From NCBI GenBank assembly GCA_000733355.1, contig JNVV01000017.1:72783-96560 (forward strand): a DNA stretch of 23,778 nucleotides. Reading direction: 5' to 3'. Source of the DNA: Falciphora oryzae (Eukaryota > Ascomycota > Sordariomycetes > Magnaporthales > Magnaporthaceae). Each line of letters begins with the position of its first letter. Within the stretch, counting starts at the first letter, position 1. The notes beneath the pieces are model-generated. The model worked only from the letters and a program-made list of their open reading frames with translations, was not told the DNA's origin and made no database searches. Positions 2,619-23,058 of the stretch are shown one piece after another. Made by a program: the position numbers and the translations under genes.

Positions 2619-3775
2619 TTAACGGAGCAGCTCATCAGCCGAATCGATGGTGTCGCGAAGGGCCGACTCGAGTGGGATCCAGCCGCGGCCGGCCCACTTC
2701 TTCAGCAGGGACAGCGCAAGGGAGACTTCATAGGTCTGGCCGGCGAGGCCGTCGACCCCAGGTGTGCCATCGGGGAACTTGCGGTCCGGGTACATGCGCC
2801 GCAGCAGGGCGAGGATGGTGTTCCAGTTGAATTTGTCCACCGCCGCGATGATGCGCTCGTTCCTGACGTCCGGGTCGACGGCGGCGGCGAAGTGGATGAC
2901 GGCGATGTCTTTGGCCTCCACGTGGGCACCTATTTTTCCGCCGGTGTAAACGTCAGCCACGAGCCGATAGCATTGTTGGGGCTCGTTCAGAATGGGAGTT
3001 GTCGTCGCGCGCGTGTGTGTTTCTCACCTTTTACATTCTTCTGGAAGCCGTCCGTGCCGTTGACGATGGCCATGAGGAACCCCGCCGAGGTGTTGAGTTG
3101 CTCCTTGGTAAACACCGTCCCGAACACGAAGAAGGGGTGGACGGTGTTGAAGACGAACCCGGGTCTTTCCTCGTCCACAAACTTCCAGGCCGCCTTCTCG
3201 GCCAGGACCTTGCTCGCCGCGTAGACGATCAGGCCCTGCACGATATCGGTCTCGCCGGGGCGGCGGTTATAGGCCCGCTCGACGGACTCGTCGTTCCACG
3301 AGTTCCTGTCCTTGACCGAGAAGTCGTCGGTCCGGTCGTCGATGCTGTAGACGGTGCCCATGCTGGAGCAATGCACGAACCGGGTAACCGATGTCTCGGC
3401 CGCCGCGGTGCGCAGCAGGTCCAGCATGGACGCCACGACGCCCGGCACGACCTTTTCAGGGTCTGGGTCCATGGTGAGGTTGCTGGCCACGTTGACGACC
3501 GCGGCGACGCCCTTGACAGCCTCCTTGTAGGCACCCGGGACTGTCATGTCGGGTACGTCGAAGAGCTCCAGGTACCCGTCCTTGGTGTACTTTTCGAAGG
3601 GTTCTTGGGAGAAGAAGCCCGCCTTGGAGCGGTTCCGGACCGTGCCCCGGACCCGGTAGCCCTCTTCCAGGAAGACCTTCACGACATGGGATGCGATGTA
3701 GCTCGTGGCGCCGGTCACCAGGACCAGGGAGCCGCGTGGGATCGCCACGGGGTTGTTGCTGCCTATGGGGCCCAT
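2619..3775 (-). CDS. NAD(P)-dependent extended short-chain reductase (aldehyde/ketone reductase, Gre2-like)
   Basis: Two exons (3775-3028 and 2929-2619) give 352 aa, the usual size for Gre2/dihydroflavonol-reductase-like extended SDRs. The 98-nt intron (3027-2930) has a GTGAGA donor, a CTGAC branch motif and a TAG acceptor, and it keeps the frame. The N-terminal Rossmann motif is LVLVTGATSYIASHVV, where the glycine-rich pattern is less standard than TGxxGxxA. An Arg-rich turn (VRGTVRNRSK) suggests NADP preference. The catalytic YxxxK pair is in VYAASKVLAEKA, and the upstream Ser is in FVHCSSMGTVY. Such cytosolic enzymes reduce carbonyls such as methylglyoxal, aldehydes or pathway intermediates. 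The substrate cannot be read here. The start is the ATG at 3775, because the frame further upstream reaches only a GTG. No biosynthetic neighbours are intact, though a flavin monooxygenase pseudogene follows at 4877-6780, so a former small metabolic cluster is possible. Confidence 0.88.
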
Positions 3776-4876
3776 TTCGGGATGTGGTGGAAGCACTTGT
3801 CAACCTCTTGGTGCCGATGTCACTCTGGTGGTAGACCAAGGACAAAGCAGAGGCGATCAGATGAGTTAGTATAGTAGAACGGGAATTATACGACTTTTTC
3901 ACCAAAGTTAGGGGCCCCTAAAGTTATATCACACTCTCGATGTTGAAGCTAATCGATACTTGTGCTGCTGATAGACATGAATCTGGAATCCATGCCAGTT
4001 ATAACTATGGCTGAGCCCTGTCGGACTCGGAAGTACCACCAGCAGCCGGGTTTAAAGCTCTCGCACTCATTTTAAGTCCGGCCCATCCTCCGCATCGGGT
4101 CATCTTCCGGTTGGTGCGGAGAATGGGGCATGCTTAGTCAGCTTGGCAGGAAAGAATGCCATTGTCATTGTGCATCGGGGCGCCCTTGTAAGCTATGATT
4201 ACCATTGTTACGTATGCGAGCGTCCTTCGAGAATCACACCGGCAGATGGGTGGGGACCCTAAATGCCGGTTGAGGAGAATTTGTAACATGCAATTTAGGC
4301 ATGTCAGCAAGGTATGGGCCAATGGGAACGCCGGGACCGGGACAAGAGCTTACAACTGCGCGTCAAGTTTGATAAGTGATAGGATGATAGAAATCTCGGT
4401 ACTTGCTGACGTCGCAGTCCATCCTTCGCCCTTGACCCCTCTCACCCCGACGCCCCGACCCCACGCCGAAGGGTGCCGCCCCGCGACAAAAATGCAGTCT
4501 GGGGGAGATCTGCCGAACATACGCTTCGAGCGGATTCAAACCTTCTTCGCAACGCTGATAAACCCCTAGTGCCACCATACGGGCGCATATTTGGCAAAAA
4601 GAGTTCGGGCGGGACCGTCGACCAAGAAAAGAAAAAAGTCTCAAAGGGCCAAAGTGGAGACAAAGCCGGGCGAAAGGTGTCGCGGCAGCAGCAGGGGAGC
4701 GGCAGCAGCGCCGTCCCGGACCGGACTCAGGTTCATCAACACGGTGCACCCCAGCGACGCGGTAAGCCCCTAGGAGCTGCGGACATCCGATCACACATCG
4801 TTACGCAGATACACGCGCGGGGCACCCACGCCGCCCATACCAGCACCAGCAGCAGCGGCGGCCAGACTGGAGGGTA
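3776..4876. other. Intergenic stretch upstream of the reductase
   Basis: No supported gene. It should include the reductase promoter, but no clear element can be named. An imperfect inverted repeat (CATCCTCCGCATC at about 4084 against GGTGCGGAGAATG at about 4113) lies in it. Frames at 4363-4794 and 4473-5417 are GC-rich shadows without domain signal. Confidence 0.4.
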
Positions 4877-6838: not shown

Positions 6839-7859
6839 CTAGGAATCCTGGACCTCTACCAGATCATCCTCTCCTGCCTCTCCATCCTCCCCCGGCGTCG
6901 GCTCCGGACTTGACCGTAACATGCTTTTGCGTAAAAGTTCGGCGAGTCTGGCAGGATCGAGGCTGTCACTTCCCGCCGCGTCACTCGATGCCGCGTCGTC
7001 GCCGCCGTAAAGGTCCATCTGCTCCCTGAGCATCCTCAAGGCCTCTTCTGCGCTCGGCATCTCCTCGTTCCAGCAACGCTGGATAACCTCGCCGAGAGCG
7101 GCAAGGTCCTCGCCGTCCAGACTGGGGAACTCCCTTCGTTCGTAGCGGCTTTCGATCTCTTCGTCCGGGACGCCGTCGAAGGGCTTCCGCCACTGCATCA
7201 CCTCGTAAATGGCGCATCCGAGAGCAAAAAGCTCCCTGCTTTTGGGCGGTCGTTCGTTGAACCCCGCCCCCAGCACAGCAGTTCGTATGCCTGCTCTTCG
7301 CAGGTTCCAGGCTTGATATCCCTCCCTTCCATCGTGGACCCGCCAAAATTGCCGATTTTGACGGGCATGTCTGGGAAGAGAAAAACATACGCATGCGAGC
7401 CTTTCGCGGGGGCTTGGCGTGCCGCCTAATGTATCTGCGCAGGTCCCCCAGGCCGGCGAGCTCCAGGACGAGCGCGTGCACGCCCGACGTGAGCTCGAGG
7501 AGGCCCCGGCATCTCAGCACCCGGTCGTGCTCGCCCGGGTGCGCATACACCTCGGCCTCGATGGCCAGCTCGTCTTCGGCATTGAGCTCGTAGCAGGCTC
7601 GCCTCTGTCCCTCCTCCCCGACCTGCCAGCCCTTGTAACCCGTTTCGTTGTCCGGGCAGGTGGCGAAGCAGGAGCCGCCCATGCCAATGATGGAGTCCCA
7701 CATTTCCTTGGCAATGGCGGGAAAACCCCAAGGCCGATGGGTTTCAGCCAAAGGGTGCTGTGGAAGCCGAAGCAATGGGGCGGATTCCGGTGGCGTCGAT
7801 CTTTGGGCGTCGCGTCGCGTCGCATGGCTCGAGGGCAGCCGTTCCTGATCCACGAACAT
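6839..7859 (-). pseudogene. Protein kinase-like pseudogene lacking the catalytic loop
   Basis: The N-lobe reads from ATG 7859: a glycine loop IIGMGGSCFATC, a candidate ATP-lysine in TGYKGWQV, then CYELNAEDELAIEAEVYAH, HDRVLRCRGLLEL and LVLELAGLGDLRRYIRRH. The expected 30-40 residues with the HxD catalytic loop are absent. ARMRM runs straight into a 20-nt block (7390-7371) that starts GTATGT and ends CCCAG, followed by MPVKIGNFGGST, where the DFG motif is NFG. A second break lies near 7262-7285. After it the C-lobe continues in another frame: RELFALGCAIYEVMQW, FDGVPDEEIESRYE and GEVIQRCWNEEMPSAEEALRML. An acidic tail follows to the TAG at 6839. Loss of HxD, the DFG Asp and frame continuity all argue against kinase activity. 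Related fungal kinase-like genes are common and of unknown role. Confidence 0.78.
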
Positions 7860-9097: not shown

Positions 9098-9964
9098 ATG
9101 GTCAAGACATACATCCTCGCGCCGGACTACTCGACGGCCCCACCGCCCGACGGGCCGGTCCGGCTTGGCGACGTGCTGACCGACCTGTCGGAGCTCGTGG
9201 CGACGAACAAGACGAGCCGCGTGCCCGTCCCCGCCGCCGACCTGCTGCCCGTCGACTACAAGTACAACTTCCGCGCGACGCGCTCGCGGCTCCTGGGCGG
9301 CGACCTGGGCATCTGGGCGCAGGTGGCCAGCATCTTCGGCGTCGGCGCCGAAACGGGCTGGGTCTACGAGGCCCAGAGCACCGACGTCATCAAATTCGCC
9401 GCCGTCGAGACGCACGCCTTCAACCCGACGCCTGAGTACGTGCGCGCCGTCATGGACAGCGAACCGGTGCGGGAATACGTGGAGAGAGTCGGCGGCAAGA
9501 GGGGCTTCGTGTTTATCATCACCGGCTTGAAGATCGGGCAGGGCGCACAGGTCGAGACCGAGTACAGCGTCGAGAAGGGCCTGAATCTCAAGCTGGGCTT
9601 CGCGCAACCCGGCATCCCCTTCGAGGGAGGGCCGGGGGGCGGTGTGCGAAGGCGGAAGGTCGAGGGGCTTTCCTTTGAGGATTCTACCGATTTCGTCATT
9701 GCTTTCCGCGTGCGCAAGATTGCTTATAAGAAGGGCGTGCTCCTCAACAAGGCGTATAACAAAGGGGCGACTATGATGGATGGGGAAGAAGGGGAGGGAG
9801 AGAAGGGGGAGCTTGATCTTGAGCTGGAGCTGGAGGGCGAGGCCGAGTTGGATGACGTGCAGTCGGATAGATGGCAAGAGGAGCTGCAGGCGGTTTCAGG
9901 TGGCAACGATGATGACCAAGAATCGCTGTGGATCATCCCCAAGGTCGCAGAGCTCATCGGTTAG
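9098..9964 (+). CDS. Gasdermin-like pore-forming cell-death protein (candidate)
   Basis: Single exon, 288 aa. ATG at 9098 was chosen because the N-terminus MVKTYILAPDYSTAPPPDGP fits a widespread fungal family and the open frame upstream does not. The pattern follows the gasdermin N-terminal pore-forming fold. Around residues 98-130, KFAAVETHAFNPTPEYVRAV and SEPVREYVERV precede a strand (GFVFIITGLKIGQGAQVE, 136-153) like the VYVVTEVLQTQKEVEV strand of vertebrate gasdermins. A glycine-rich loop follows (about 174-183), then FEDSTDFVIAFRVRKIAY (193-210), like their GSTLAFRV strand. Residues 228-270 form an acidic low-complexity tail (repeated EGE and LELELE), a candidate removable inhibitory end. 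In Podospora the gasdermin-like HET-Q1 is activated when the subtilase HET-Q2 clips its C-terminus. Here the next gene, 187 bp away and convergent, is a subtilase. The family call rests on pattern and context, with no alignment run. The alternative is a conserved fungal protein of unknown function. Confidence 0.68.
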   Translation: MVKTYILAPDYSTAPPPDGPVRLGDVLTDLSELVATNKTSRVPVPAADLLPVDYKYNFRATRSRLLGGDLGIWAQVASIFGVGAETGWVYEAQSTDVIKFAAVETHAFNPTPEYVRAVMDSEPVREYVERVGGKRGFVFIITGLKIGQGAQVETEYSVEKGLNLKLGFAQPGIPFEGGPGGGVRRRKVEGLSFEDSTDFVIAFRVRKIAYKKGVLLNKAYNKGATMMDGEEGEGEKGELDLELELEGEAELDDVQSDRWQEELQAVSGGNDDDQESLWIIPKVAELIG

Positions 9965-10151
9965 GAAAAGAGACGTCATCGGTAGTTTATGGGTCATCCT
10001 CGTTGTGGCTGCTATCCTCCACCATTTGACCGTGCCTTTGCCTAATACACAAGCAATTAACGTAATTATAACTGACCAACGCTAAATCATAACATATAAA
10101 TCCAAGTTCGCAGCGACAAGGGTATCCCAGTGAGTATCCTGTCCAGCAACG

Positions 10152-13100
10152 TTACCGCATCAGTTGCTTCTTGATAATCGCACAAACCTCCCTCTCATCG
10201 AGCCCAGGCTTCCAGAGGTTCCAAGGGCCGACAAAGTCGTATCCTCCCCTGACTTCCTGTTCCGCCATCAGGCGGAATATCTTCTTCATCCCCGGCCCCG
10301 TCCCCAGCTCCCTCAGCTGCTCAGGGGGGATTTTACCCTCGAGCGCCGGATGTCTAACGACGTCGAGGATGCTGGCCGCGATCCCCGCCGCTATTGGCGC
10401 CGAGTAAGACGTTCCCGACTTCCACACGCGCTTGTTGGACCAGGAGAACTCGATTCCCAGCCCGAGGGTAGTGAAGTTGTCCGTGTTTCGCAGCGCCGAG
10501 GGGTTGATGCCATGGTGGTCGTTGCCCTTCCCGTCGGAGGCGTGCATGCAGATGACGCGTTCGTCCTTCGCCGGGTACGCCCTGCCCGAGTTGCCGCCCG
10601 AGTTGGCGGCCGAGGCAATCAAGATCTTGCCACGGTGGTATGCGTCGTTGAGGGCAGCTTTGACCGTGACGTTGTTGCCGTCAACTGAGAAGGGCATGAC
10701 GATGATGTCGACGTTCCACTGCTTCTCGTCGCTAGCCTTCCGAATTGCCTGTTGTCGAGGAAAGAGTGTCCGATCAGCCGATTGGTACCAACACGTCAAG
10801 GGATGAACGTCAAGGTCTGAGGCGACGACTGGGCGTTAAAAGGGTGACCTACCTCAGCAATGGCATCGCATTCTCCAGATTTCCTGCCAGAAGCAATCTT
10901 CGCCACGTAAAGATCTGCCCGTGGCGCAGCCCTCAAGAGCAGAGTCGTCGTCAGTGTGCCATGGCCGTCTTTATCTTCACCGTCATCAGGTTTAAGCAGG
11001 AACGACTTGATGGCCTTGACAGGATGATCTAGCCGCGAATAGTCTCCTTTTATGCGTTGTCGAGCTTCCTTGAACGTGTCGTTCCCCTTATCGACGCCCG
11101 TGTCCAAAATGGCGATCCTGATTCGTCGGAGCTGGGTTGCCGTCGCTGTCGAGCCCGCACCTGGTCCAGCACGGCCAAGATCTTCGAGGTTCTCAAGCCG
11201 CTGCTCCGTCCATTGGTCTAGAAGCTTGAAGAACTCGATAGACCGAGTCTTGATAGTCCTTTTGATGAGTGGTCGGTCAGTACAGCTTATCAGGCTAACG
11301 TCTACCACGACGCCCAGTCCATCAAGTAGGGAAGGGAACTCACCGGCTTATTTCATCATCTTTACTTCCATCCTCAACCTCGTCAAAAAAAACCACGCTG
11401 GGAGTCCCGAGCGTGGTGATTCGAGTGGGCGGAGAGAAAGGCCTCTGTAGAGGTGACTTGAGGGGGTGGGAAGCTGGTGGTACCACCGCTATGCCCGTTA
11501 GGACCGCCATTGGCTCTTCGATGCTAGTAGCAGGAAGCGGAAGCACCACATTCTCTAGGTCAAACTCTCCATAGTTTGACAGTTCCTCCTCCAAGGGGAG
11601 AACTATGTTTTGGTATATGTAGTCCGAGTCTGTCTCGTTCGCGTCTCTGCGGCTCGTTCTGGCAAAGTCCAGGCAACTTTGGATGGCCGTGGTGTAGTGT
11701 TCCGTGAGTGAACCCGAAAGCTTGGTCGCCAGTATCGTGCTGATGGTCAGCCACTCGTTGTGGTGACCGGCTGACAATTGGCATTCCTCTTCTGTGATCC
11801 TGCGGCCACGCTCAATGTCGACCAAGAGTTTGGCGAATGATAAGACCGCCGGGTGGTGCGGAACGCTGGAATTACTGCAGACGACCTCGATGGAAGGGAC
11901 GGAGTATGACAAAGATCCAAGGACGTATGGATGGTGCATGTCGAAAAGTCGTATTGCCTGGCTCTCCGCGCCGCACAGGAAGACGAGGTCGATGGCCTCC
12001 CACTTGCGTTGAATCCACTTGCTCCCGAAGAGGCGGAGGAGACACCTCGCGAGGTTCAGGGCCAGCGCCCGCTTACTTCGTGGCGTGAACAAGCCACCTT
12101 CGTAGGCGCTTTTGAAGTAGCCCTTGTCCAGAAGGTCGGCCAACGACATACTGGCTGTGAATAGCGGGTATTTAAGACGTCTGCCGGTGTCAGGTGCGTC
12201 AAAGAGCGTTTCCCCGCCCAGGATCACGCGGAGAGGCTCCCGCCTTTCTCGGTATCCTTTTACTGTTTGACACACTTTCTCGAGCCTGGTTGCAATCGGA
12301 TAATCCGTGGGGCTGGTCGCATAATTAGCAGACATCCGCGAGGGGATTTGACGCTTAGTTGGACTCACTCGGTGACGAGACACTGCGCTTCATGCCAGTG
12401 AGTCTCTGTTTTTGCTGAGCAACAGGAAAGAAACATGCCGTACACCGGCCGAGTGAGACCTTCGCCAACCGGTTGCTTAAATCCTGTAAGGTGAAGCATC
12501 GCTCGATGCGGTATGCTACACTCAGTTGGGCAGCGAGCAAAGGCTTCAAAGAGAGCCCGTGAAGCATCCTGCGCTTTGTGGATCTCTGCCCTAGTTCCTG
12601 GGGAGATGAGCCGTTTGAGGGTCTTGGTGGATGTGTCGACCGGTCTCGTATTGTCGAGACATTCGAGGAAGCGGTTGAACTGCTCGAGGACGAGCAATGC
12701 GCTCTTATAGTCGTCCTTGCTGTTTCCGAGACTGATTAGGTACCCGAACTTGAAGACCGGGTCTCCCGAGCTGCCTAGATCTTCCAATAGAAGCCTAAGC
12801 GCCTTCAGCTTCGGGTAAACGCATTGAGCGTCAGAGGTTGGCTTAGGGTTGTAAACTTCAGAGGACGAGTAGACAGCTGCTCTGGCAAAGCTGCGGATCT
12901 TCGACGCAGCCCAAAACAGTGATGAAACCACGTCTTCGATGTGGGAGTTCCGTGTGTTCTTATTGTGGTCAGCGAGTCTGTTTCCTTGAATGGGAGGCAG
13001 TGGTGGCACTGGAATAGCCTACTTGTTCAGCTTGCACCTTTCTCTCACAGACGTCAAGCACATCATCGTCAATTTGGGATTCGAGAAGCCGCATGACTCG

Positions 13101-13406
13101 ACCTAGCTTTTCCCTCATCTCCTGGGCACTACTCTCCGTGAGATGATTCCAATCTCGGTCTGGCTTGAGGAGCATGGCCATCTGCTTGACCTCGTAACGA
13201 AAGAAAACACGAAAGTCCTCGATTGACCCTCGGTCTTTGTCGGGCAGTCCGTCGACGCGGAGGCGGGACGCGTACCAGGGGAGGTCGGCCGCCGCGAATA
13301 GAGCCAGGACCGCGCTTAGGCTGAGCCAATTCTCGGCCATGGTGCTGCTAGCCTCGCTCAAGTTGCGGAGGCCTAGGCCGGTGGCGGGAGTCCCGGCGCT
13401 CGCCAT
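10152..13406 (-). CDS. Subtilisin-like serine protease with N-terminal DUF7580-like region (HET-Q2-like candidate)
   Basis: Five exons: 13406-13023, 12958-12369, 12312-11344, 11258-10853 and 10748-10152, joining in frame to about 981 aa. Introns are 64, 56, 85 and 104 nt. The third could instead end at a TAG at 11295, giving 993 aa. Residues 1-130 are helical with no known domain. Residues about 150-640 resemble the fungal DUF7580 region, including RALALNLARCLLRLFGSKWI, HHPAVLSFAKLLVDIERGR, a YTTAIQSCLDFA segment and IVLPLEEEL. The S8 domain occupies about 690-980 with an intact triad: Asp about 700 (IAILDTGVD), His about 747 (DGHGT), oxyanion Asn about 832 (ASAANSGGN) and Ser about 897 (GTSYSAP). 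There is no signal peptide, so a cytosolic regulatory protease is likely rather than a secreted digestive one. The gasdermin-like gene lies tail-to-tail on one side and an NLR is divergent on the other. By analogy with HET-Q2 it may cleave the neighbour (inference). The DUF7580 name is from recognition of pattern only. Confidence 0.85.
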
Positions 13407-13831
13407 TGTATACACTTGCCTCGCATGTGGTCGACTGTGCCGCGCCAGAAGGCGCCCTCGTCCAGGGCAGGGAGGTAGGTAGGTAGGCCATCGTCGGATG
13501 TAGAGCGATGGCGCAACCACGATCGTTCAGCTCCCCACGTGATCAGACCAGGTGCGGGGTTGGGTTTTCGGTGCCCCGCGGCAGTCCATCATGATTGGAT
13601 GATGAGCACGTGCCCCACATTCTGGGCTCACCTCTCGACGTCGTTCGCCCTCAAGCTGCTTCCAGTCCACAAAGCTGGTCCAACGACAAAGGATACCAGC
13701 TAGTAAGACGAAGGTTTTCTTGTCATAAATGCTTCGGCATTGAGAGCAGCCCTCTCCCAGTTTCTCTGTTTGTCGATGGACACCGTGACTCGCATCCTGG
13801 AAGTAGCCTTCGAGCGCACCTTCTCCCTGTC
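13407..13831. promoter_or_regulatory. Shared divergent intergenic region (protease / NLR)
   Basis: These 425 bp separate the start codons of the protease gene (minus) and the NLR gene (plus), so they must hold both promoters. Frames run through it in both directions from non-ATG codons (13520 minus, 13595 plus), but the extensions lack family similarity. No TATA box or binding site can be named with confidence. A short GGTAGGTAGGTAGG run occurs near 13472-13487. The layout suggests co-regulation. Confidence 0.5.
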
Positions 13832-16800
13832 ATGGCCACTGAGCGTCACAGTCCCCAGGCGGTCAGAGAGATCAGCAGCCTCGCCCGGGACTGCAAGGTC
13901 TTGTTCCAGAAAACCCAGACGGCACCATGGCTGACCGAGGCCAACGCCCGTCTGGAGGAAGTGGCCCAACGCTTTGACGCCTGGGTGTCGTATCTCGGCG
14001 TGCTTGCTGTTGGCAATGCATCGCTCGACTATCGACTGAGACTGAGTGAAGAGATTCGCGTCATGGTTGTTGACTTACTTGCGCTCCTGGAAAGAAACCT
14101 AATCCGCCGTAAGCATCTCACGCTCTACTACCCAAATCCGTCTTTATGCTCACGTCCCTCCTCAGTCGTCTCGTCTGCACTGGATGATCTACTCGAGCCT
14201 CTGGATTCCCTTCGTGGCGGCGTCGATAGGCTGCATCGCATGGCCGTGGCAATCCGAAAGTCGTCCACCGCAAGTTTGGCCTCGAGGATCAAGTCTTTCT
14301 CTGACACCCACGACGACGAAGACTATTTCTACAGCCTCGCTTTGGAGATCGTCCGACTGAAGTTCCCGAATGCCAGTACTGGTCTCCGCAAGCATCTTGC
14401 CACTTCTATCAAGTTTCGACGCCAAAGCCTGCGATACAAGCGACGCCATCAAGTCAAACTACAGCCACATCCAGGTCAACATGGAGAACTTGTATATCAG
14501 CAAGCCTCGACCCCACTCCTTCCCAGTGTCCGGGCGCCATCCCCTACCCCCGATGTCCCTAACCCGCGGAATCCCTTTCCGGCTCCGTCCAGTACCAGCG
14601 CATCAACACTCATCCCTGAGGTGTTCGCACGTTATTATGTCCCACCGGAGTCTACTCTCGAACCTCCTCGACAAAGTGCACCAGCTCCGTCTGTCATCAG
14701 CACTGGATCGACTGTTGTCGAACACAACGACCTTCCCTACCCCAAGCCACCTAGCCTGCCAGACGGACAACAGGCACATTGCGACTGGTGTTTCCAGACG
14801 CATCCGGCCGTGAAGTATGGAAATAAGTCTTGGTGGAGGTGAGTTCCTCTCTCTACGCTAGCACCGAAATCGCCTGCTGACAGAACCAAGCCATCATGTC
14901 CTCCGACATCTGGAGCCTTACGCTTGCCTTTCCCAGGTATGCAAGGATCCCCCGAAGCTCTTCAGCAAGCGGACCGAATGGCGTGATCATATGCGTTCAG
15001 ACCACGGAATCCGCTGGCCGGAGGAGATCTATCCCCCAGTCCAGTGGTGTTGTGATATCGGACACGAACCTGTCTATTTTGACAAAGAACGCGACATGGA
15101 ACAACATCTCGCCGATGAACACTCGAATATCTTTACCCCTGCCCAGTACCCTACGGTCATCGAACAGAACTCACTACCGTCTTCACGGGAAGAGCATGTC
15201 TGTCCACTCTGCGACTCTATCCCAAGTACCGTCCAGGATCTACTTGCTAAGAGTGGCAAAGCTAAAGCCGGAGAGCAAGCTGCGGATGCGAGGCAGCAGG
15301 CCAAAGGAGCCAAGGAACCTGCTTCGAAACGCCGCAAGGTGACCTTCGAAGCGGACACAGACGAATCGTCATCGAGCGGGGATGACTCTCGCCCACAAAC
15401 CGCTATGCCGACCCAGCTCGACCTCTCAGGCAGGGAACTTCGCTGTTTCGTCGAGCTTGAGAGGCATGTTGCTGCGCATTTGCAATGTCTTGCCTTCGTC
15501 TCTATTCGAAACTTCGACAGCAACGATGATGGAATCGGAAACGCGAGCTCCAAGGCTGGAGCAGAACACGAAACTGCACAGTCTGGCTCAGGAACCCCGA
15601 AGTCGAGCCAGTCGACTCTGGTCTTTGAGGATCTTGCATCATCCCGCCGAAATTCTTCTGCCTCCCAGAAGGAAGAAGATGTTCCGCCTCCAATGCAACA
15701 AGGCTGGGCCGAGTTATTCGGACAGTCGCTCTCGACTCTGTCGACATCCAGCGACAGCATCGATGCCACCCTCAAAGAGTCTCTCGTAGACCGGCTCTTC
15801 TTCTCCGAAATCGACGTACGCTTGACAACCATAAGAGCGGCCATAGGCGGGTCGTGCCGCTGGTTCCTTGCCAAGCCGGAATACACCGCCTGGCGCGACA
15901 TGGCACAGCAGTCAAACGACTGCAATTTCCTCTGGATCAAAGGCAACCTTTGCACCGGGAAATCTACTCTAATGAAGTTCCTTTTTAAAGAGGCTAGGAA
16001 GAATGCAAAAGGCGACTCATCACAAATCATACTGTCCTTTTTCTTCAACGCGTGGAGCACGATCGAGGAAAAGTCAACAACAGGTCTTTACCGTTCTCTT
16101 CTCCACCAACTCTTCAACGAAGCGGTAGATTTAAAAGACAGTCTTGAGTGGATGACAGCTCATAGCGCAAGAGACATCCTACAAAATGGATGGTCCGAGG
16201 AAGCGTTAAAACAAACGTTAGCGCATGCTATTCCAAAGCTCGGAAGTCGGTCTTTGATGATATTTATTGATGCGTTGGACGAGTGCGACCCGAGCCAGAC
16301 TGCTGGCATGGTTTGCTTCTTCGAAAAGCTGTGCGACGACGCCAAAGACGCAAACGTGAAGCTGCGGATTTGCTTTTCGAGCCAGCACTATCCAGCCGTC
16401 GCCATCCGGCAAGGCGTCGAGGTCATTTTGGAGGCTGAGAACGGGCATACCGATGATATCAAGCGCTACATCGAGGCGAAACTTCGGCTTAGCAGGACCG
16501 AGCCCGCCAAAACACTCCGAGCCGACATTCTCAAAAAATCTTCGGGCATCTTTCTCTGGGTGGTTTTGATCCTCGAAATCGTCAATATGGAACTTGGAAA
16601 TAGCGGCTTCTCTATCCGCCGAATTCGCAACCGCCTCGAACAAATCCCGCCTGGATTCGACAAGTTGTTTGAGATGACCCTTGGTCGGTATGGGGAAAAT
16701 CTCGAGCAGTTGCATGTCTGTCTCAAATGGGTCCTTTTCGCTGCTCGTCCCCTCAGGCCACAGGAGCTCTACTTTGCCGTCCAACTAGGTCTCGGTAAAG

Positions 16801-18113
16801 AAAGCTCGGGTTATTGGAACCAAAAAGACATCGACTTGGACCAAATGAAGACGTTCGTACAAACTTCCTCCAAAGGCCTGGCCGAAGTCACGCGAAATAT
16901 AGCCTCCGAGGTCCAATTCATTCACGAATCTGTCCGGGACTTCTTGCTTGGCCGATACGGAGGCCAGTGGTCTGGGGCTTCTGGGAGCTTCGGGGGACAC
17001 TGCCACAACTTACTAAGAGATTGCTGCTTGGTTCAGCTAAACGGCCCCATTCACCAAAGCGTCGATGTACTGGACGCTCTATCGCAGGCCCAGGCAGCAC
17101 AACTAAGGGAGGATCTTCACCAAAAGTTTCCGTTTCTGGATTATTCGGTCTTCAACGTCCTTCATCACGCCAACAGCGCGCAGCAGCATGGGAGGGATCA
17201 AGGCGGTCTCCTTACAACTTTCCCTCTTGCGCAGTGGGTAACGCTCAACAATGCTCTCGAAAGACATGTCGTCCGGCGGTATACCAAATCAGTCAACCTC
17301 CTCTATATCCTCGCCGAAAAGAATTTGGCGGACCTCATTCGTATCCATCCTCAGCCGGCAGCCTTTTTTAATGTTGGAGAGGAACGCTATGGACCGCCAA
17401 TATTCGCTGCGCTAGCTACAAGGAGTTACGGCGCAGTTCAGGCCATTCTGGAAATCCTCCAGGCGCGAGTCCAGCACCATTCTCCTCTTCCCGACCTATG
17501 GACACAATACCAACAGAACCAAGGCAAACAGACCGACTTTGGGCGCAGTTTCGTCTTTTCACGAGGAAAAGGCATCCTCTCGTATCTGCGAGGGCGAGGC
17601 GACGAGCCGATAATTCTTGCCTATCTTTTCACGGGCCAGGTCGAGGTCGACGCGAAGGATATCGGCGGCCGGACGGCGCTGTCGCGGGCCGCCGAGAACG
17701 GCCAGGAAGCCGTTGTACAGCTGCTACTCAACACTGGCCAGGTCGAGGTTGACGCGAAGGATAAGGACGGCAAAACTGCGCTGTGGTGGGCATCCGGAAA
17801 CGGCCACGAAGCCGTTGTACAACTGTTGCTCAACACTGGCCAGGTCCAAGCCGACGCGAAGGATAACAACGGCCGGACGCCGCTGTCGTGGGCCGCCGAG
17901 AATGGCCGCGAAGGCGTTGTGCAGCTGCTCCTCAACACGGGCCAAGTCCAAGCCGATGCGAAGGACAACCAAGGACGGACGGCGCGATCAAGGGCCGCCG
18001 GAAACGGCCACGAGGCCATTGTGCAGCTGCTGCAGCAAGCCCTTTCTGGTAATCGCACTGTTCCTACAATTGCAACCCTGTCAGATGGTTCGGCAGAGAT
18101 GAGGACACAATAG
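13832..18113 (+). CDS. NLR protein: C2H2-type zinc fingers, NACHT NTPase, ankyrin repeats
   Basis: Two exons (13832-14838 and 14891-18113) give 1409 aa. The 52-nt intron has donor GTGAGT, branch GCTGAC and the less common acceptor AAG, which is the one that restores the zinc-finger frame. Residues 1-250 are a helical fungal N-terminus (VDRLHRMAVAIRKSS). A Pro/Ser linker follows, then C2H2-like units: Cys348/Cys353 with His369/His374, a CC..H..H unit near 390-415, and CPLC paired with a distant ERHVAAH. Walker A is GNLCTGKST (about 687-695) and Walker B is LMIFIDALDECD (about 790). The post-NACHT region includes FIHESVRDFLLGR. Ankyrin repeats begin near 1170, and the last four (about 1249-1384) are near identical. 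Such proteins are cytosolic ATP-dependent switches in non-self recognition. The ATG at 13832 is the first in frame and has good context (GTCATGGCC). A likely polyadenylation motif follows at 18146. The gene is intact and divergent from the protease. Confidence 0.9.
17628..18035 (+). repeat. Four near-identical 102-bp ankyrin-encoding repeats
   Basis: The units start at 17628, 17730, 17832 and 17934, exactly 102 bp (34 codons) apart. Each encodes a unit of the form NTGQVxxDAKDxxGRTALxxAAxNGHEAVVQLLL. The DNA is highly similar between units, for example CTGGCCAGGTC and GACGCGAAGGA. Differences concentrate at codons in the exposed ankyrin positions (IGG, KDG, NNG, NQG and SRAA, WWAS, SWAA, SRAA). 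This is the high-identity repeat pattern of fungal NLR sensors under concerted evolution. Confidence 0.92.
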
Positions 18114-19754: not shown

Positions 19755-19850
19755 TCCTAGCACATATGTCGCTAATAGTAGTTCAACGATAGCTTCGTGC
19801 CCGATTTTGGAAATATAGCTTAGCGACGTGGAACTATCGCTATCTTTCGC
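19755..19850 (-). pseudogene. Out-of-frame ankyrin remnant of the neighbouring NLR
   Basis: In a different frame from the NLR's last codons, the minus strand reads SYISKIGHEAIVELLLATYV, a clear ankyrin helix pair. The NLR frame stops at 19842-19840 after DKGATEGER, and switching frame just before the stop lets the array continue. An indel has therefore cut the repeat array short. The remnant runs to about 19755, where ankyrin similarity ends close to the deiminase fragment. Confidence 0.7.
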
Positions 19851-22800
19851 CTTCTGTTGCGCCTTTGTCGAGCAGCAGCTTAACGATAGCTTCACATTTA
19901 CCCATTATCGCGAGCGTTAACGCCGTCCGCGAGGAGGTGCGCCTGAGGCTGCAGTTGGAACCAGAGTCGTCGCGGCGGTTGTAGACCCGATCGTAAGCAA
20001 TCGAGCTGTAGCCGCGGGAGCCCCGCCCATGGTTGCCCATCGCGACGTTCATGTCGGAGTCGTGGTGGGAGAACGTATACGATAGCTGTTCCGCGTTGGC
20101 GTCGGCGCCACCTTCGAGCAGCAGCCGCACCATCGCCTCATCCCCCTTTTTTACCGCCAACATCAGCACCGTATCTGCGCCGCTGCCGAAGCTAAAGCAG
20201 TAGCCTCGCGTCGCGTTGGCGTCCGCGCCGCCGTTAAGCAGCAGCCGCACCACCGCCTCATGCCCCTTTTCTACCGCCAATATCAGCGCCGTCACGTCGT
20301 ATCCCCTCGCGTCAACGTTAGCGCCGGCGCCGAGTAGCAGCTCAACGATGCTCTCGCGCCCTTCCTCGGCAGCCCAAAGCAGCGGTGTCCGACCAGAGCT
20401 ATCCATCGAGTCCACATGGACTTTCTCTAGAAGAGCTTTTACCGCTTCCTGAACGCCGAAGTACGCCGCCAAGTGAAGCCCTGTCATCCGCAGTGGAACG
20501 TCTCGGCCGCGCGTCGTACGTCCCGACCACGTCTTAGCCATAAGAGCTTGGCCCGCTGCCTCGACCTTTTTGTCGCATTCTAGGAAGTTTGCAACCCCCT
20601 GGCATAAACTCGAAGCTTCGCGAGCATGGTGACCCCAGTTGCGTGCAGCGTAGTCGTAGAGCGGATTCGACCGCAGCCGCTCTTCAAGCTCGTCGTCCTT
20701 TCGACAAGACCCGTGGCCAAAAACGTTGAAAGAGAGGTACGCAACGCATATTTTCGTGATATTAGCATCCGCGTTCGGAAACCAATGTTCCCGCGTTCCC
20801 TCGAAATACTCCTGCGTTGTGTAGTGGACCAAGCGGATAATGGCGCTTTTTTCGTCAACCGTGACCAGTCCAGCACACAAGGAGACCACGCTTTCGATGT
20901 GCGGAAGGTTCTCTTCGTCAAGCTCTGGTTCGCCAACTTCCACAGCAAGAGCATGCCGAAGTTCAAACTTAGTCAATGGCCTCTTTGCGCAGGTGACCCA
21001 CGACAGAACCCGCTTAGCAAGCTCTCCACGGTCCTCGGTCTGGGCTTCGATGCGCTCCATTGCCTCCTTGTACGTATCGTTATACGATGTCGGAAGCTTT
21101 TTCAGGGCATTCCGAACAGCCTTGGGGGACAGCTTCCCGACCAGGGAATTCAGATGAAGCTGTGATAGTAGGAACCTGGCAAAAGTGTCAGTGTATTTCC
21201 TGTGTTGAGGTGAGGAAAGCCACATACATGCTGTCAGCGGCGCCGGCGATCCCGGTCCTGATTTCCTCTTGTAGACCCGGACCGTCCTTGATAAAGGACG
21301 GTAGGTGTTGTATATATTCGTCCACGTATGCCCGTACGTCACGTTCACTGGCGCGTATCTCCAACGATACGTCGCTGTCGAATTGCTCAGTGATCTCCGG
21401 GATGAATCTTGACGTTGCGAAGATGTTTGCCGTGCACTTGTCGCGGAGGTTGATGAGCTCCGACAGGAGTTTCGCTCGAATGCCATGGGATACACTGCAT
21501 TCATCGAGCCCGTCGACGACGATGAAGACTCTCGAGTACATGCCAACAACAGACTGGAGAGTTGTCGCGATTTCATTGCGTGATGGCCGAGTCTTGTTGT
21601 CCTTGTGCTTGCCGTGGAGAGATCTGACGCTGTCTGGCAGAGAAGGCCGGCCCTGGGCCAGCTGCTTCAGCAGACTCGCGAGTAGTTCTTCAGTCGTCTG
21701 TTCATTCTGCCGCCGAAAGCTGCAGTATAGGTATGCAACGACGTCGTCCTCGTTGCCTCGGAAGCGAGTAGTAAGCTCGTCGACCACGATCGATGTGATG
21801 ATCGTCTTTCCGGCGCCGGGAATGCCAGGGCAGAACAACGTCTGCGTTTTTCCCTCCACCCATGCTTTGAACTTGGCCGAATCGAGCAGCCATCGACCGG
21901 TACCTTCTTGTCGCCGACTGAGGTAATCGCTTTGCTGGGGCCCGTAATCGATCCTCGCGAGCCAGTTTAAAATATCCTGACGGTCGTGACTATCGTTGCC
22001 GAGTCTCACGTGGCGGATGTCCTTTTCTGCAGTTTCGGGGATGTAACTACCATCGATCAGCTAAATGGTAACACCTGATAGTTCTTGGATGCAGGTACAC
22101 ACCGCTTCACTTCGTCAACTGGCATGTGGACGAATAGCTGCCTCGCGTATGCAGCCGCTGCTGCCGCCGCGTACCCGTGCCATTGGTCATTCTTGTGAGA
22201 GTCGCAATAATCCGAGATTCCCCGGATGACGATGCAGGGGAAGTCGGCCAGTGCTCCCGCCGCCTCCATCTCAAAGCACAGCACACCGTGCTCCGTGGCC
22301 AGTCGGTCCCTCAATAAAGCATCCTTGACCACCAACTCTCCAGATGCGATCGTTCCCCGATGGACGACCACATATGGCTCCTCATCCTCGCCGTCGCTAG
22401 GTCGTTGGACCCTCTGAGAACCGTCGCATCCGCATTCATCGCAAGACGCTCCAGATGTCCGATGAACGTAGCCGGCTTTGTACAGATGATCCTGGTCTGT
22501 ACCCGGATGCTTGTATCGTCGCAGTCCTCGGATGCTCGTGTTGATCTTCTTGATATTCTCCTCAATCGGATCCTTGCGCGACCTCGCCCGCTTCGCTGCC
22601 AGATCCTGCGCAGCATTGAGGAGAACGGCCGGGGGTGGGGCGAGGACGCCGGTGCGCTCGAACCGTCCGTCCTTGGCTTTTCCGTGGTCGTATTGCACTG
22701 CTCCGGAATGTCCCCCGGTCGGCTTGCTGACGACGACGTCCCCGAGCCGGATCATACCGTTGTCGGTCTTCACAGGAACACCGCCTCCGATGCCAACCAA

Positions 22801-23058
22801 CAGGCCGAAGCGCAGGTTCGGAAACGTCATCCTCATCTGAGTGACCACCGTAGCTGCCGGGTTGTTGCCAGGTTGATGGAGTCCTGCAACGACGACGCTG
22901 TGACCAGCGATGCGCCCGAGGTTATAGACGTTGTGATCGGTTGGAGGCTGCGGCAGACGCTCATGCTCCTCGTCCAGCATCTCCAGTGCAGCGATCTGCT
23001 CCACCTCCAGAGGGCAAATCCACCCCACTGTGTAGTCCTCGTGGCTCTTTTTGGCCAT
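19840..23058 (-). CDS. NLR protein: PNP_UDP nucleoside-phosphorylase-like domain, NACHT NTPase, ankyrin repeats
   Basis: Three exons (23058-22103, 22046-21228 and 21175-19840) give 1036 aa. Introns of 56 and 52 nt have GTGTGT and GTATGT donors and TAG and CAG acceptors, and all joins keep the frame. Residues about 8-300 are the fungal PNP_UDP effector domain: YTVGWICPLEVEQIAALEML, LLVGIGGGVP, IRLGDVVVS, and the nucleoside-binding FEMEAAG and RGISDYCDSHKND. Walker A is PGIPGAGKT (about 392-400) and Walker B is FIVVDGLDECS (about 490). A helical region (ITKxx-like CVAYLSFNVF) leads to ankyrin repeats from about 810 (TGLHLAAYFGVQEAVKALLE to TALTLAIMGKCEAIVKLLLDKGA). PNP_UDP NLRs are presumed to act on nucleosides or nucleotides when triggered in non-self responses. 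The ATG at 23058 matches the family start, and the open frame upstream begins only at TTG. The C-terminus is truncated by a frameshift relative to a remnant repeat, but the core is intact. Confidence 0.9.

What the first reader, a model, noticed from the sequence alone, without database searches (positions are those of the whole stretch)
9098..18113. Three-gene candidate cell-death module: gasdermin-like protein, DUF7580-subtilase, zinc-finger NLR
Three intact genes sit side by side among gene corpses: a gasdermin-like effector, a cytosolic-looking subtilase with its full catalytic triad, and a NACHT/ankyrin NLR divergent from the protease. Seen in sequence: order, orientation, motifs. Established: Podospora het-Q1 (gasdermin-like) and het-Q2 (subtilase) are adjacent and the protease activates the pore former; bacterial gasdermins also sit next to proteases. 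Inference: the NLR is the sensor or an extra licensing arm of the same pathway. The combination of DUF7580-type protease plus a linked zinc-finger NLR is not one I recognise as characterised.
Basis: partly seen in the sequence, partly recalled or inferred. Interest (0 to 1): 0.92.

Follow-up and report, generated by a model that had tools for sequence, protein, structure and literature searches.

The report
Three-gene fungal gasdermin death module
Three neighbouring fungal genes look like one cell-suicide switch, with a pore-former, a protease that should unlock it and a sensor protein, and the same trio recurs many times in this genome with the sensing end swapped, which suggests an undescribed receptor family for this kind of cell death.

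Summary
(1) 9098-9964(+) is a fungal gasdermin: E 9e-10 to RCD-1-2 alone; a paralog profile reaches RCD-1 (3e-32), HET-Q1 (1e-17) and, weakly, bacterial gasdermins. (2) 13406-10152(-) is a 981-aa, five-exon DUF7580 + subtilase protein with its full triad. DUF7580 resembles MLKL/IRAK4 kinase domains, so it is probably a pseudokinase. (3) 13832-18113(+) is a 1409-aa zinc-module + NACHT + ankyrin protein. Gasdermin plus S8 protease is an already published two-gene cluster. The third gene is the news. Within this one genome, 21 of 27 loci matching its N-terminus or zinc module lie within 10 kb of a DUF7580 locus (0.3 expected by uniform placement), 18 of those 21 head-to-head, and 16 of 27 lie near a gasdermin; paralog distances correlate, largely through close pairs. 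NACHT is one of several C-terminal ends (ANK, WD40, TPR, HEAT, kinase). Best reading: sensor, then pseudokinase-protease, then gasdermin pore, as three genes. Linkage is shown; mechanism is inferred. Other species could not be searched; I found no description in the papers held. New variant of a known kind.

The parts
9098..9964 (+). fungal gasdermin (fGSDM), 288 aa, single exon: presumed pore-forming executioner
   Evidence: ORF; PDB rcd-1-2 E 9.3e-10; paralog profile to rcd-1-2 E 3.4e-32, HET-Q1 pore 9uv9 E 1.3e-17, bacterial gasdermin 7n50 E 0.0037
9782..9961 (+). acidic C-terminal tail of the gasdermin (last 60 aa, net charge -18); candidate inhibitory tail and cleavage region
   Evidence: 8 other paralog frames that reach the C-terminus have -8 to -21; the other 3 of the 12 are first-exon pieces (0, -1, +3). 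HET-Q1 loses its last 40 residues (PMC10989679)
10152..13406 (-). DUF7580-subtilase protease gene, five exons, 981 aa
11574..12574 (-). DUF7580 domain (aa 257-571, spans intron 2), probable pseudokinase
   Evidence: Pfam E 2.3e-53; paralog profile to MLKL pseudokinase E 2.5e-5 and IRAK4 E 2.9e-4 in PDB; hhalign to one kinase not significant
10308..11122 (-). Peptidase_S8 domain (aa 694-930, spans intron 4); D700 codon 11104-11102, H747 10963-10961, N832 10604-10602, S897 10409-10407
13407..13831 (.). 425-bp stretch between the divergent protease and receptor genes, candidate shared promoter region
   Evidence: head-to-head order in 18 of 21 zinc-receptor/DUF7580 pairs
13832..18113 (+). zinc-module receptor (Zn-NLR), two exons 13832-14838 and 14891-18113, 1409 aa
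13832..15536 (+). conserved N-terminal part of the receptor: N-domain plus Cys/His-rich zinc-like module across the intron
   Evidence: alignments A1 (9 rows) and A5 (8 rows); Pfam has no hit for the window row of A5 and none better than E 0.05 in the other seven; in A1 scattered zinc-finger hits (zf-Di19 in 3 of 9, best 0.0039) and one WAC_Acf1 hit at 3.4e-6 in 1 of 9; genome searches. Zinc binding is assumed from residues, not tested
15849..16382 (+). NACHT (NPHP3_N) domain
   Evidence: Pfam E 2.5e-28
17619..18031 (+). ankyrin repeats encoded by a 102-bp tandem array, 3.9 copies, 79% matches

Best explanation
A three-gene, pyroptosis-like death pathway. Proposed mechanism: at rest the gasdermin is held by its acidic C-terminal tail, and the S8 protease is held in check by its own DUF7580 (pseudokinase-like) region. 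The divergently transcribed zinc-module receptor couples to the DUF7580 protein through its conserved N-terminal part and senses a trigger through its variable end (here NACHT plus ankyrins). Ligand-driven assembly of the receptor switches on the protease, which cuts off the gasdermin tail; the N-terminal part then forms plasma-membrane pores and kills the hyphal compartment. Shown here: the gene models, the family memberships, recurrent linkage and orientation in this genome, correlated divergence (partly through close pairs), and different sensor ends on related receptors. Inferred: autoinhibition, receptor-protease contact, activation order, cleavage and death.
For: Gasdermin membership. 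Triad-complete S8 fused to DUF7580. 19 of 22 gasdermin loci in this genome have an S8 hit within 5 kb and 16 of 22 a DUF7580 hit within 10 kb. 21 of 27 zinc-receptor loci lie within 10 kb of a DUF7580 locus (0.32 expected under uniform placement) and 16 of 27 within 10 kb of a gasdermin (0.25 expected); 18 of the 21 are head-to-head (at C7 the gasdermin lies between the two). Distances correlate by Mantel test: Zn-DUF7580 r 0.56, p 1e-4, n 14; Zn-gasdermin r 0.41, p 0.002, n 12; Zn-S8 r 0.30, p 0.014, n 13; gasdermin-S8 r 0.45, p 0.001, n 12. Pairs C2b/C31 and C7/C12 are mutual nearest neighbours in the Zn, gasdermin, S8 and DUF7580 sets, and C17b/C41 in the three sets that hold both; window/C52 in Zn and gasdermin only. 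Related receptors carry different ends: ANK (C7) versus NACHT (C12), TPR+HEAT (C2b) versus no Pfam hit in the frame scanned (C31), TPR/ANK with sub-cut-off SH3 (C17b) versus none (C41). Published two-gene systems show S8 or CHAT proteases activating gasdermins, and HET-Q2 is only 388 aa, which fits a protease freed of a regulatory part.
Against: All linkage evidence comes from one genome, and the receptor searches were seeded with cluster members. Uniform placement is a generous null, and paralogous clusters are not independent. Dropping one of each close pair makes Zn-gasdermin and Zn-S8 correlations non-significant, and Zn-DUF7580 keeps p < 0.05 in 3 of 4 such trials. DUF7580-S8 (p 0.06) and DUF7580-gasdermin (p 0.03) are weak although DUF7580 and S8 are one protein. 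7 of 27 receptor loci have DUF7580 but no detected S8 or gasdermin, and 4 of 27 have none of these. Two gasdermin loci (C17:545721, C4:1243543) have S8 without DUF7580 or receptor detected. No expression, interaction or cleavage data; the fold model failed.
Confidence: 0.6

Rival explanations
1. A plain two-gene gasdermin-protease unit in which DUF7580 itself is the sensor; the zinc-NLR is a separate immune receptor that sits nearby because such genes gather in the same genomic neighbourhoods.
For: Two-gene clusters are the published norm. The window holds another NLR at 19840-23058. Gasdermin loci C17:545721 and C4:1243543 have S8 but no DUF7580 or zinc receptor detected.
Against: 21 of 27 zinc receptors near DUF7580 and 18 of 21 head-to-head, whereas NACHT genes in general are not enriched (7 of 151 matches); correlated divergence with DUF7580.
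Confidence: 0.18
2. The zinc protein is a regulator of the cluster rather than a ligand sensor: either a C2H2-type DNA-binding regulator of the divergent promoter or an inhibitor that keeps the protease off until it is lost or inactivated.
For: Weak matches to zinc-finger families; head-to-head layout with a 425-bp stretch between the starts. Guard-by-inhibition fits linkage and co-divergence equally well.
Against: NACHT, ANK, WD40, TPR, HEAT and kinase ends are typical of receptors rather than of transcription factors. The inhibitor version is not excluded.
Confidence: 0.14
3. A drive or addiction locus (poison-antidote type) in which linkage is kept by selfish transmission rather than by immunity.
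For: Tight linkage, multiple diverged copies.
Against: The protease-gasdermin relation is known from allorecognition; no killer/target asymmetry visible; different sensor ends have no obvious role. Not tested.
Confidence: 0.04
4. Decaying genes without present function.
For: Some paralogous loci show stops in six-frame hits, part of which are probably introns; at C41 the S8 fragment reads GTP where others read GTS.
Against: All three window genes have full-length frames, plausible introns and catalytic residues in place.
Confidence: 0.04

Closest known systems
Podospora anserina HET-Q1 / HET-Q2 (fungal gasdermin and S8 protease allorecognition pair)
   Same: Gasdermin of 278 aa versus 288 aa here; S8 protease; short C-terminal tail on the gasdermin (PMC10989679 passages); profile match to the HET-Q1 pore.
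   Different: HET-Q2 is 388 aa, here 981 aa with DUF7580; het-Q1 and het-Q2 are idiomorphs at one locus, here both genes lie side by side, convergent; no zinc-module receptor is mentioned in the passages read.
Q2L two-gene clusters (about 80% of fungal gasdermins lie beside a protease gene, about 63% beside S8; review PMC10197012, passages)
   Same: S8 protease beside the gasdermin. PMC12881547 says protease domains can be fused to repeats or to predicted kinase-like domains and that two- or three-gene clusters occur, which may already cover the DUF7580-S8 protein.
   Different: In the published picture the sensor part is fused to the protease. Here sensor-type modules sit on a separate, divergently transcribed zinc-module protein.
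Neurospora crassa RCD-1-1 / RCD-1-2
   Same: Best PDB matches of the window gasdermin by itself.
   Different: Activated by co-expression of two allelic variants; tail of the window protein extends about 75 aa past the matched region.
Bacterial gasdermin operons and the animal inflammasome-caspase-gasdermin chain
   Same: Sensor, protease, gasdermin logic; remote gasdermin homology.
   Different: S8 protease with a pseudokinase-like domain in place of a caspase or CHAT protease, and a zinc-module receptor. Details of those systems are recalled, not tested.
MLKL pseudokinase (necroptosis)
   Same: DUF7580 paralog profile matches MLKL best among PDB sequences (E 2.5e-5); one DUF7580-like gene in this genome carries a HeLo domain (L056), and HeLo is linked to MLKL's helical bundle in PMC12881547.
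   Different: Here the domain is joined to a protease, not to a membrane-attacking bundle; profile alignment to a single kinase of this genome was not significant.

Membership tests
Fungal gasdermin (fGSDM) | significant sequence homology over the N-terminal pore-forming domain to RCD-1 / HET-Q1 | tested here: met
Fungal gasdermin (fGSDM) | short C-terminal tail beyond the pore domain | tested here: met
   match to rcd-1-2 ends at aa 213 and 75 aa follow; acidic tail
Fungal gasdermin (fGSDM) | gasdermin fold and membrane pores | tested here: inconclusive
   single-sequence AlphaFold model pLDDT 34; pores not testable here
Q2L protease | S8 (or CHAT) protease domain encoded within 10 kb of a gasdermin gene | tested here: met
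   (187 bp between the genes)
Q2L protease | cleaves the gasdermin tail | not testable with these tools
   needs co-expression
HET-Q1/HET-Q2 allorecognition system | idiomorphic presence/absence of the two genes between strains | not testable with these tools
   one genome only; here both genes are present side by side
Fungal NLR | NACHT or NB-ARC domain plus superstructure-forming repeats | tested here: met
   NPHP3_N E 2.5e-28 and ANK; P-loop GNLCTGKST read directly
Fungal NLR | a canonical Pfam-type N-terminal effector domain (HeLo, Goodbye, HET, patatin, PNP_UDP, RelA_SpoT; list from PMC12258605) | tested here: not met
   no such Pfam hit in exon 1 or the start of exon 2. Amyloid motifs and sesB-like profiles outside Pfam were not tested
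MLKL-like pseudokinase (DUF7580) | profile similarity to MLKL/IRAK4 kinase domains | tested here: met
   E 2.5e-5; 37 of the 38 distinct PDB sequences at E up to 1 are MLKL or IRAK4, many of them near-identical constructs. hhalign against one kinase of this genome was not significant
MLKL-like pseudokinase (DUF7580) | kinase fold lacking catalytic residues | not tested
   no structure model was made; loss of the catalytic motifs is my reading of alignment A3, not a test

The most novel reading that the evidence does not exclude
An undescribed receptor family, with a shared N-domain plus zinc-like module and freely exchanged sensor ends, is wired by gene pairing to DUF7580 pseudokinase proteins that carry exchangeable effectors: mostly an S8 protease that fires a gasdermin, elsewhere a PNP_UDP enzyme (C15:463718) or an unidentified C-terminal part (C67). 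It would be a plug-in immune platform in fungi that joins a necroptosis-type pseudokinase to a pyroptosis-type protease-gasdermin output.
Probability: 0.45. Interest if true: 0.88.

Novelty: new variant of a known kind. Interest (0 to 1): 0.74.

Why it matters
The stimuli and regulation of the protease-bearing proteins that fire fungal gasdermins are called open in the 2025 review PMC12881547 (passages). A recurrent neighbouring receptor family with different sensor ends gives concrete candidate triggers to test, and related receptors with ANK, NACHT, WD40, TPR, HEAT or kinase ends on one backbone provide ready comparisons. A likely pseudokinase between receptor and protease would link two death pathways that are separate in animals.

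Tried and rejected
Structure route: single-sequence AlphaFold of the gasdermin gave pLDDT 34, useless for fold search. Phage records hold no gasdermin match. NCBIfam has no match for the gasdermin or the receptor N-terminus. PADLOC bGSDM matched the window protein (7.6e-4) but neither of two paralogs. Kinase link by hhalign to one kinase failed; DUF7580 against gasdermin as a control gave nothing. The zinc module against PDB gave only weak zinc-finger hits, best E 0.03.

Rows dropped or kept: C47:150956 was dropped as a NACHT-linker match. Two weak receptor hits (C2:51030, E 0.008; C11, E 0.057) were counted but not confirmed by reading; without them the count is 19 of 25. C31 (E 0.067) was confirmed by reading (L070). 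Gasdermin hits C78 and C59 are weak or fragmentary but kept in n = 22; C9:1014722, C9:353140 and C2:1606078 were left out. In the distance tests, S8 fragments of C58c, C58d and C2a were left out because their receptors were not held as sequence. Of 27 receptor loci, 16 were read (window and L057-L071), 11 were not.

Literature: PMC10197012, PMC12881547, PMC10989679, PMC12258605, PMC11138114 and PMC9815663 were seen as passages only. Clave et al. 2022 (PMC8851545) is not held, so its own list of protease architectures was not seen. Absence of a description rests on searches in open-licence papers; of these 29, 59 and 85 listed only 15 of 261, 25 of 501 and 12 of 185 papers. One search was too broad (57,488 papers) to inform. 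DUF7580 is in 0 papers held.
Full report
What is there. The window lies in a 50.2-Mb genome in 123 contigs that is fungal by its introns and gene content; the species is unknown to me. Gene 1 (9098-9964, +) encodes 288 aa in one exon. It has no Pfam family over cut-off but matches RCD-1-2 in the PDB at E 9.3e-10 and RCD-1-1 at 1.7e-6. A profile of it with ten paralogs from the same genome (A2) reaches RCD-1-2 at 3.4e-32, the HET-Q1 pore at 1.3e-17 and bacterial gasdermins at 0.0037 to 0.017. Gene 2 (13406-10152, -) encodes 981 aa in five exons with DUF7580 and a subtilase domain with Asp, His, Ser and Asn in place. Gene 3 (13832-18113, +) encodes 1409 aa with a cysteine/histidine-rich module, NACHT and ankyrin repeats, the last encoded by a 102-bp tandem array.

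Is it a module? I used the genome as its own comparison set. Gasdermin queries gave 22 loci, DUF7580 29 after merging, the S8 family 53 after merging plus a query with the window's own S8 domain, and the receptor N-terminus or zinc module 27; all counts are. 19 of 22 gasdermin loci have an S8 hit within 5 kb and 16 of 22 a DUF7580 hit within 10 kb. 21 of 27 receptor loci lie within 10 kb of DUF7580 against 0.32 expected, 16 of 27 near a gasdermin against 0.25 expected, 23 of 27 near one or the other. Of the 21, 18 are head-to-head; the exceptions are C12, C58:110838 and the weak hit C2:51030. The window's layout, gasdermin facing the protease and receptor divergent from it, recurs at C98, C40, C2b and, mirrored, C58b; at C27, C31, C15b, C52, C17b and C41 the gasdermin points the same way as the protease; at C7, C12 and C58:110838 the gasdermin lies between receptor and protease (coordinates).

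Controls and weaknesses. The null is uniform placement, which ignores that defence genes may gather in certain regions. The families average 28% (zinc module), 22% (gasdermin) and 32% (S8) identity across clusters, so passive linkage after duplication would be expected to have decayed; that last step is inference. Distances correlate between families (Zn-DUF7580 r 0.56, p 1e-4, n 14; Zn-gasdermin r 0.41, p 0.002, n 12; Zn-S8 r 0.30, p 0.014, n 13; gasdermin-S8 r 0.45, p 0.001, n 12), but much of this rests on close pairs: with one of each pair removed, Zn-gasdermin and Zn-S8 lose significance in both trials and Zn-DUF7580 keeps p below 0.05 in 3 of 4 trials. DUF7580-S8 (p 0.06) and DUF7580-gasdermin (p 0.03) are weak, although DUF7580 and S8 are parts of one protein, so the test has little power, and several rows are exon fragments. 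Receptor queries came from cluster members. Everything is within one genome.

The receptor family. 16 of 27 receptor loci were read in part or whole (window and L057-L071). In the nine-row alignment A1 the H, C, C, W, H, H, W, C, H columns are invariant; in the 15-row alignment some of these are missing in C2b, C31 and C7. The N-domain shows an SLDxR motif in 6 of 8 rows of A5, the other two frames not covering it. Pfam has nothing better than E 0.05 for the N-domain rows and only scattered zinc-finger hits, plus one WAC_Acf1 hit in 1 of 9, for the module. The C-terminal ends by Pfam are: NACHT+ANK (window, C67), NACHT (C12), ANK (C98, where the contig ends, C58b, C7), WD40 (C55), TPR (C15b), TPR+HEAT (C2b), protein kinase in an overlapping frame that I presume to be spliced on (C40), TPR and ANK with a sub-cut-off SH3 (C17b); none found at C52, C27, C41, C31 and C32 in the frames scanned. 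Joins across frames are my reading, without transcripts. Related receptors carry different ends, as expected for swapped sensors.

The protease's other half. A profile of 19 DUF7580 paralogs (A4) matches MLKL pseudokinase at E 2.5e-5 and IRAK4 at 2.9e-4; 37 of the 38 PDB sequences listed are these two. With ten sequences MLKL was at 8.9e-4. Comparison with a single kinase by hhalign failed. I therefore call it probably a pseudokinase. Seven receptor loci have DUF7580 without a detected protease or gasdermin; at one of them, C15:463718, the DUF7580 protein carries PNP_UDP instead (E 2.2e-11), and at C67 a long C-terminal part without a hit over cut-off. This hints that the effector end is exchangeable too.

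Comparison with what is known. Reviews state that about 80% of fungal gasdermin genes sit beside a protease gene, about 63% S8 (PMC10197012), that protease domains can be fused to repeats or predicted kinase-like domains, and that two- or three-gene clusters exist (PMC12881547). HET-Q2 is 388 aa and removes 40 residues from HET-Q1 (PMC10989679). So genes 1 and 2 are new members of a known pair. [quoted passage not shown] a survey of fungal NLR effector domains does not contain zinc or C2H2 and notes S8 and CHAT NLRs next to gasdermins (PMC9815663). I found no account of a separate zinc-module receptor paired with DUF7580 proteases in the searches named in Tried and rejected; the primary paper on these proteases was not available.

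Verdict. It is a three-gene variant of the fungal gasdermin-protease system with a testable receptor; the mechanism is inferred.

Noticed in passing
window 19840-23058 (-): A second apparently intact NLR, PNP_UDP + NACHT + winged helix + ankyrins, 1036 aa with two introns; PNP_UDP is a canonical fungal NLR effector.
   Followed up: partly
L038 (C15:462218-466021): DUF7580 and PNP_UDP_1 in one open frame of 1142 aa, beside a zinc receptor, with no S8 or gasdermin detected: an alternative effector end.
   Followed up: partly
L029 (C67:95097-98813): DUF7580 protein beside a zinc receptor with about 500 aa of C-terminal sequence without a Pfam hit over the cut-off.
   Followed up: no
L056 (C18:250649-253870): HeLo domain (E 4.8e-24) plus DUF7580 just under its cut-off in one protein, an MLKL-like layout, not near a zinc receptor.
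   Followed up: no
L041 (C41:307066-307641): The S8 region reads QPGTPIATA where others read GTS: the catalytic Ser seems replaced, perhaps an inactive protease in a complete three-gene cluster.
   Followed up: no
gasdermin frames in window, L010, L012, L014-L017, L019: C-tails are strongly acidic and end in or near a short hydrophobic stretch (such as SLWII, SVWIL, AWWVL, CVCIAF), a possible inhibitory plug; L011 (C58b) lacks it.
   Followed up: partly
L059 (C27), 3242-4213: A HET-domain frame (E 3e-16) next to the C27 three-gene cluster.
   Followed up: no
window 2987-3799 (-) and 6842-7513 (-): An NAD-dependent epimerase-like frame (E 9e-13) and a weak, sub-cut-off protein-kinase match left of the module.
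   Followed up: no
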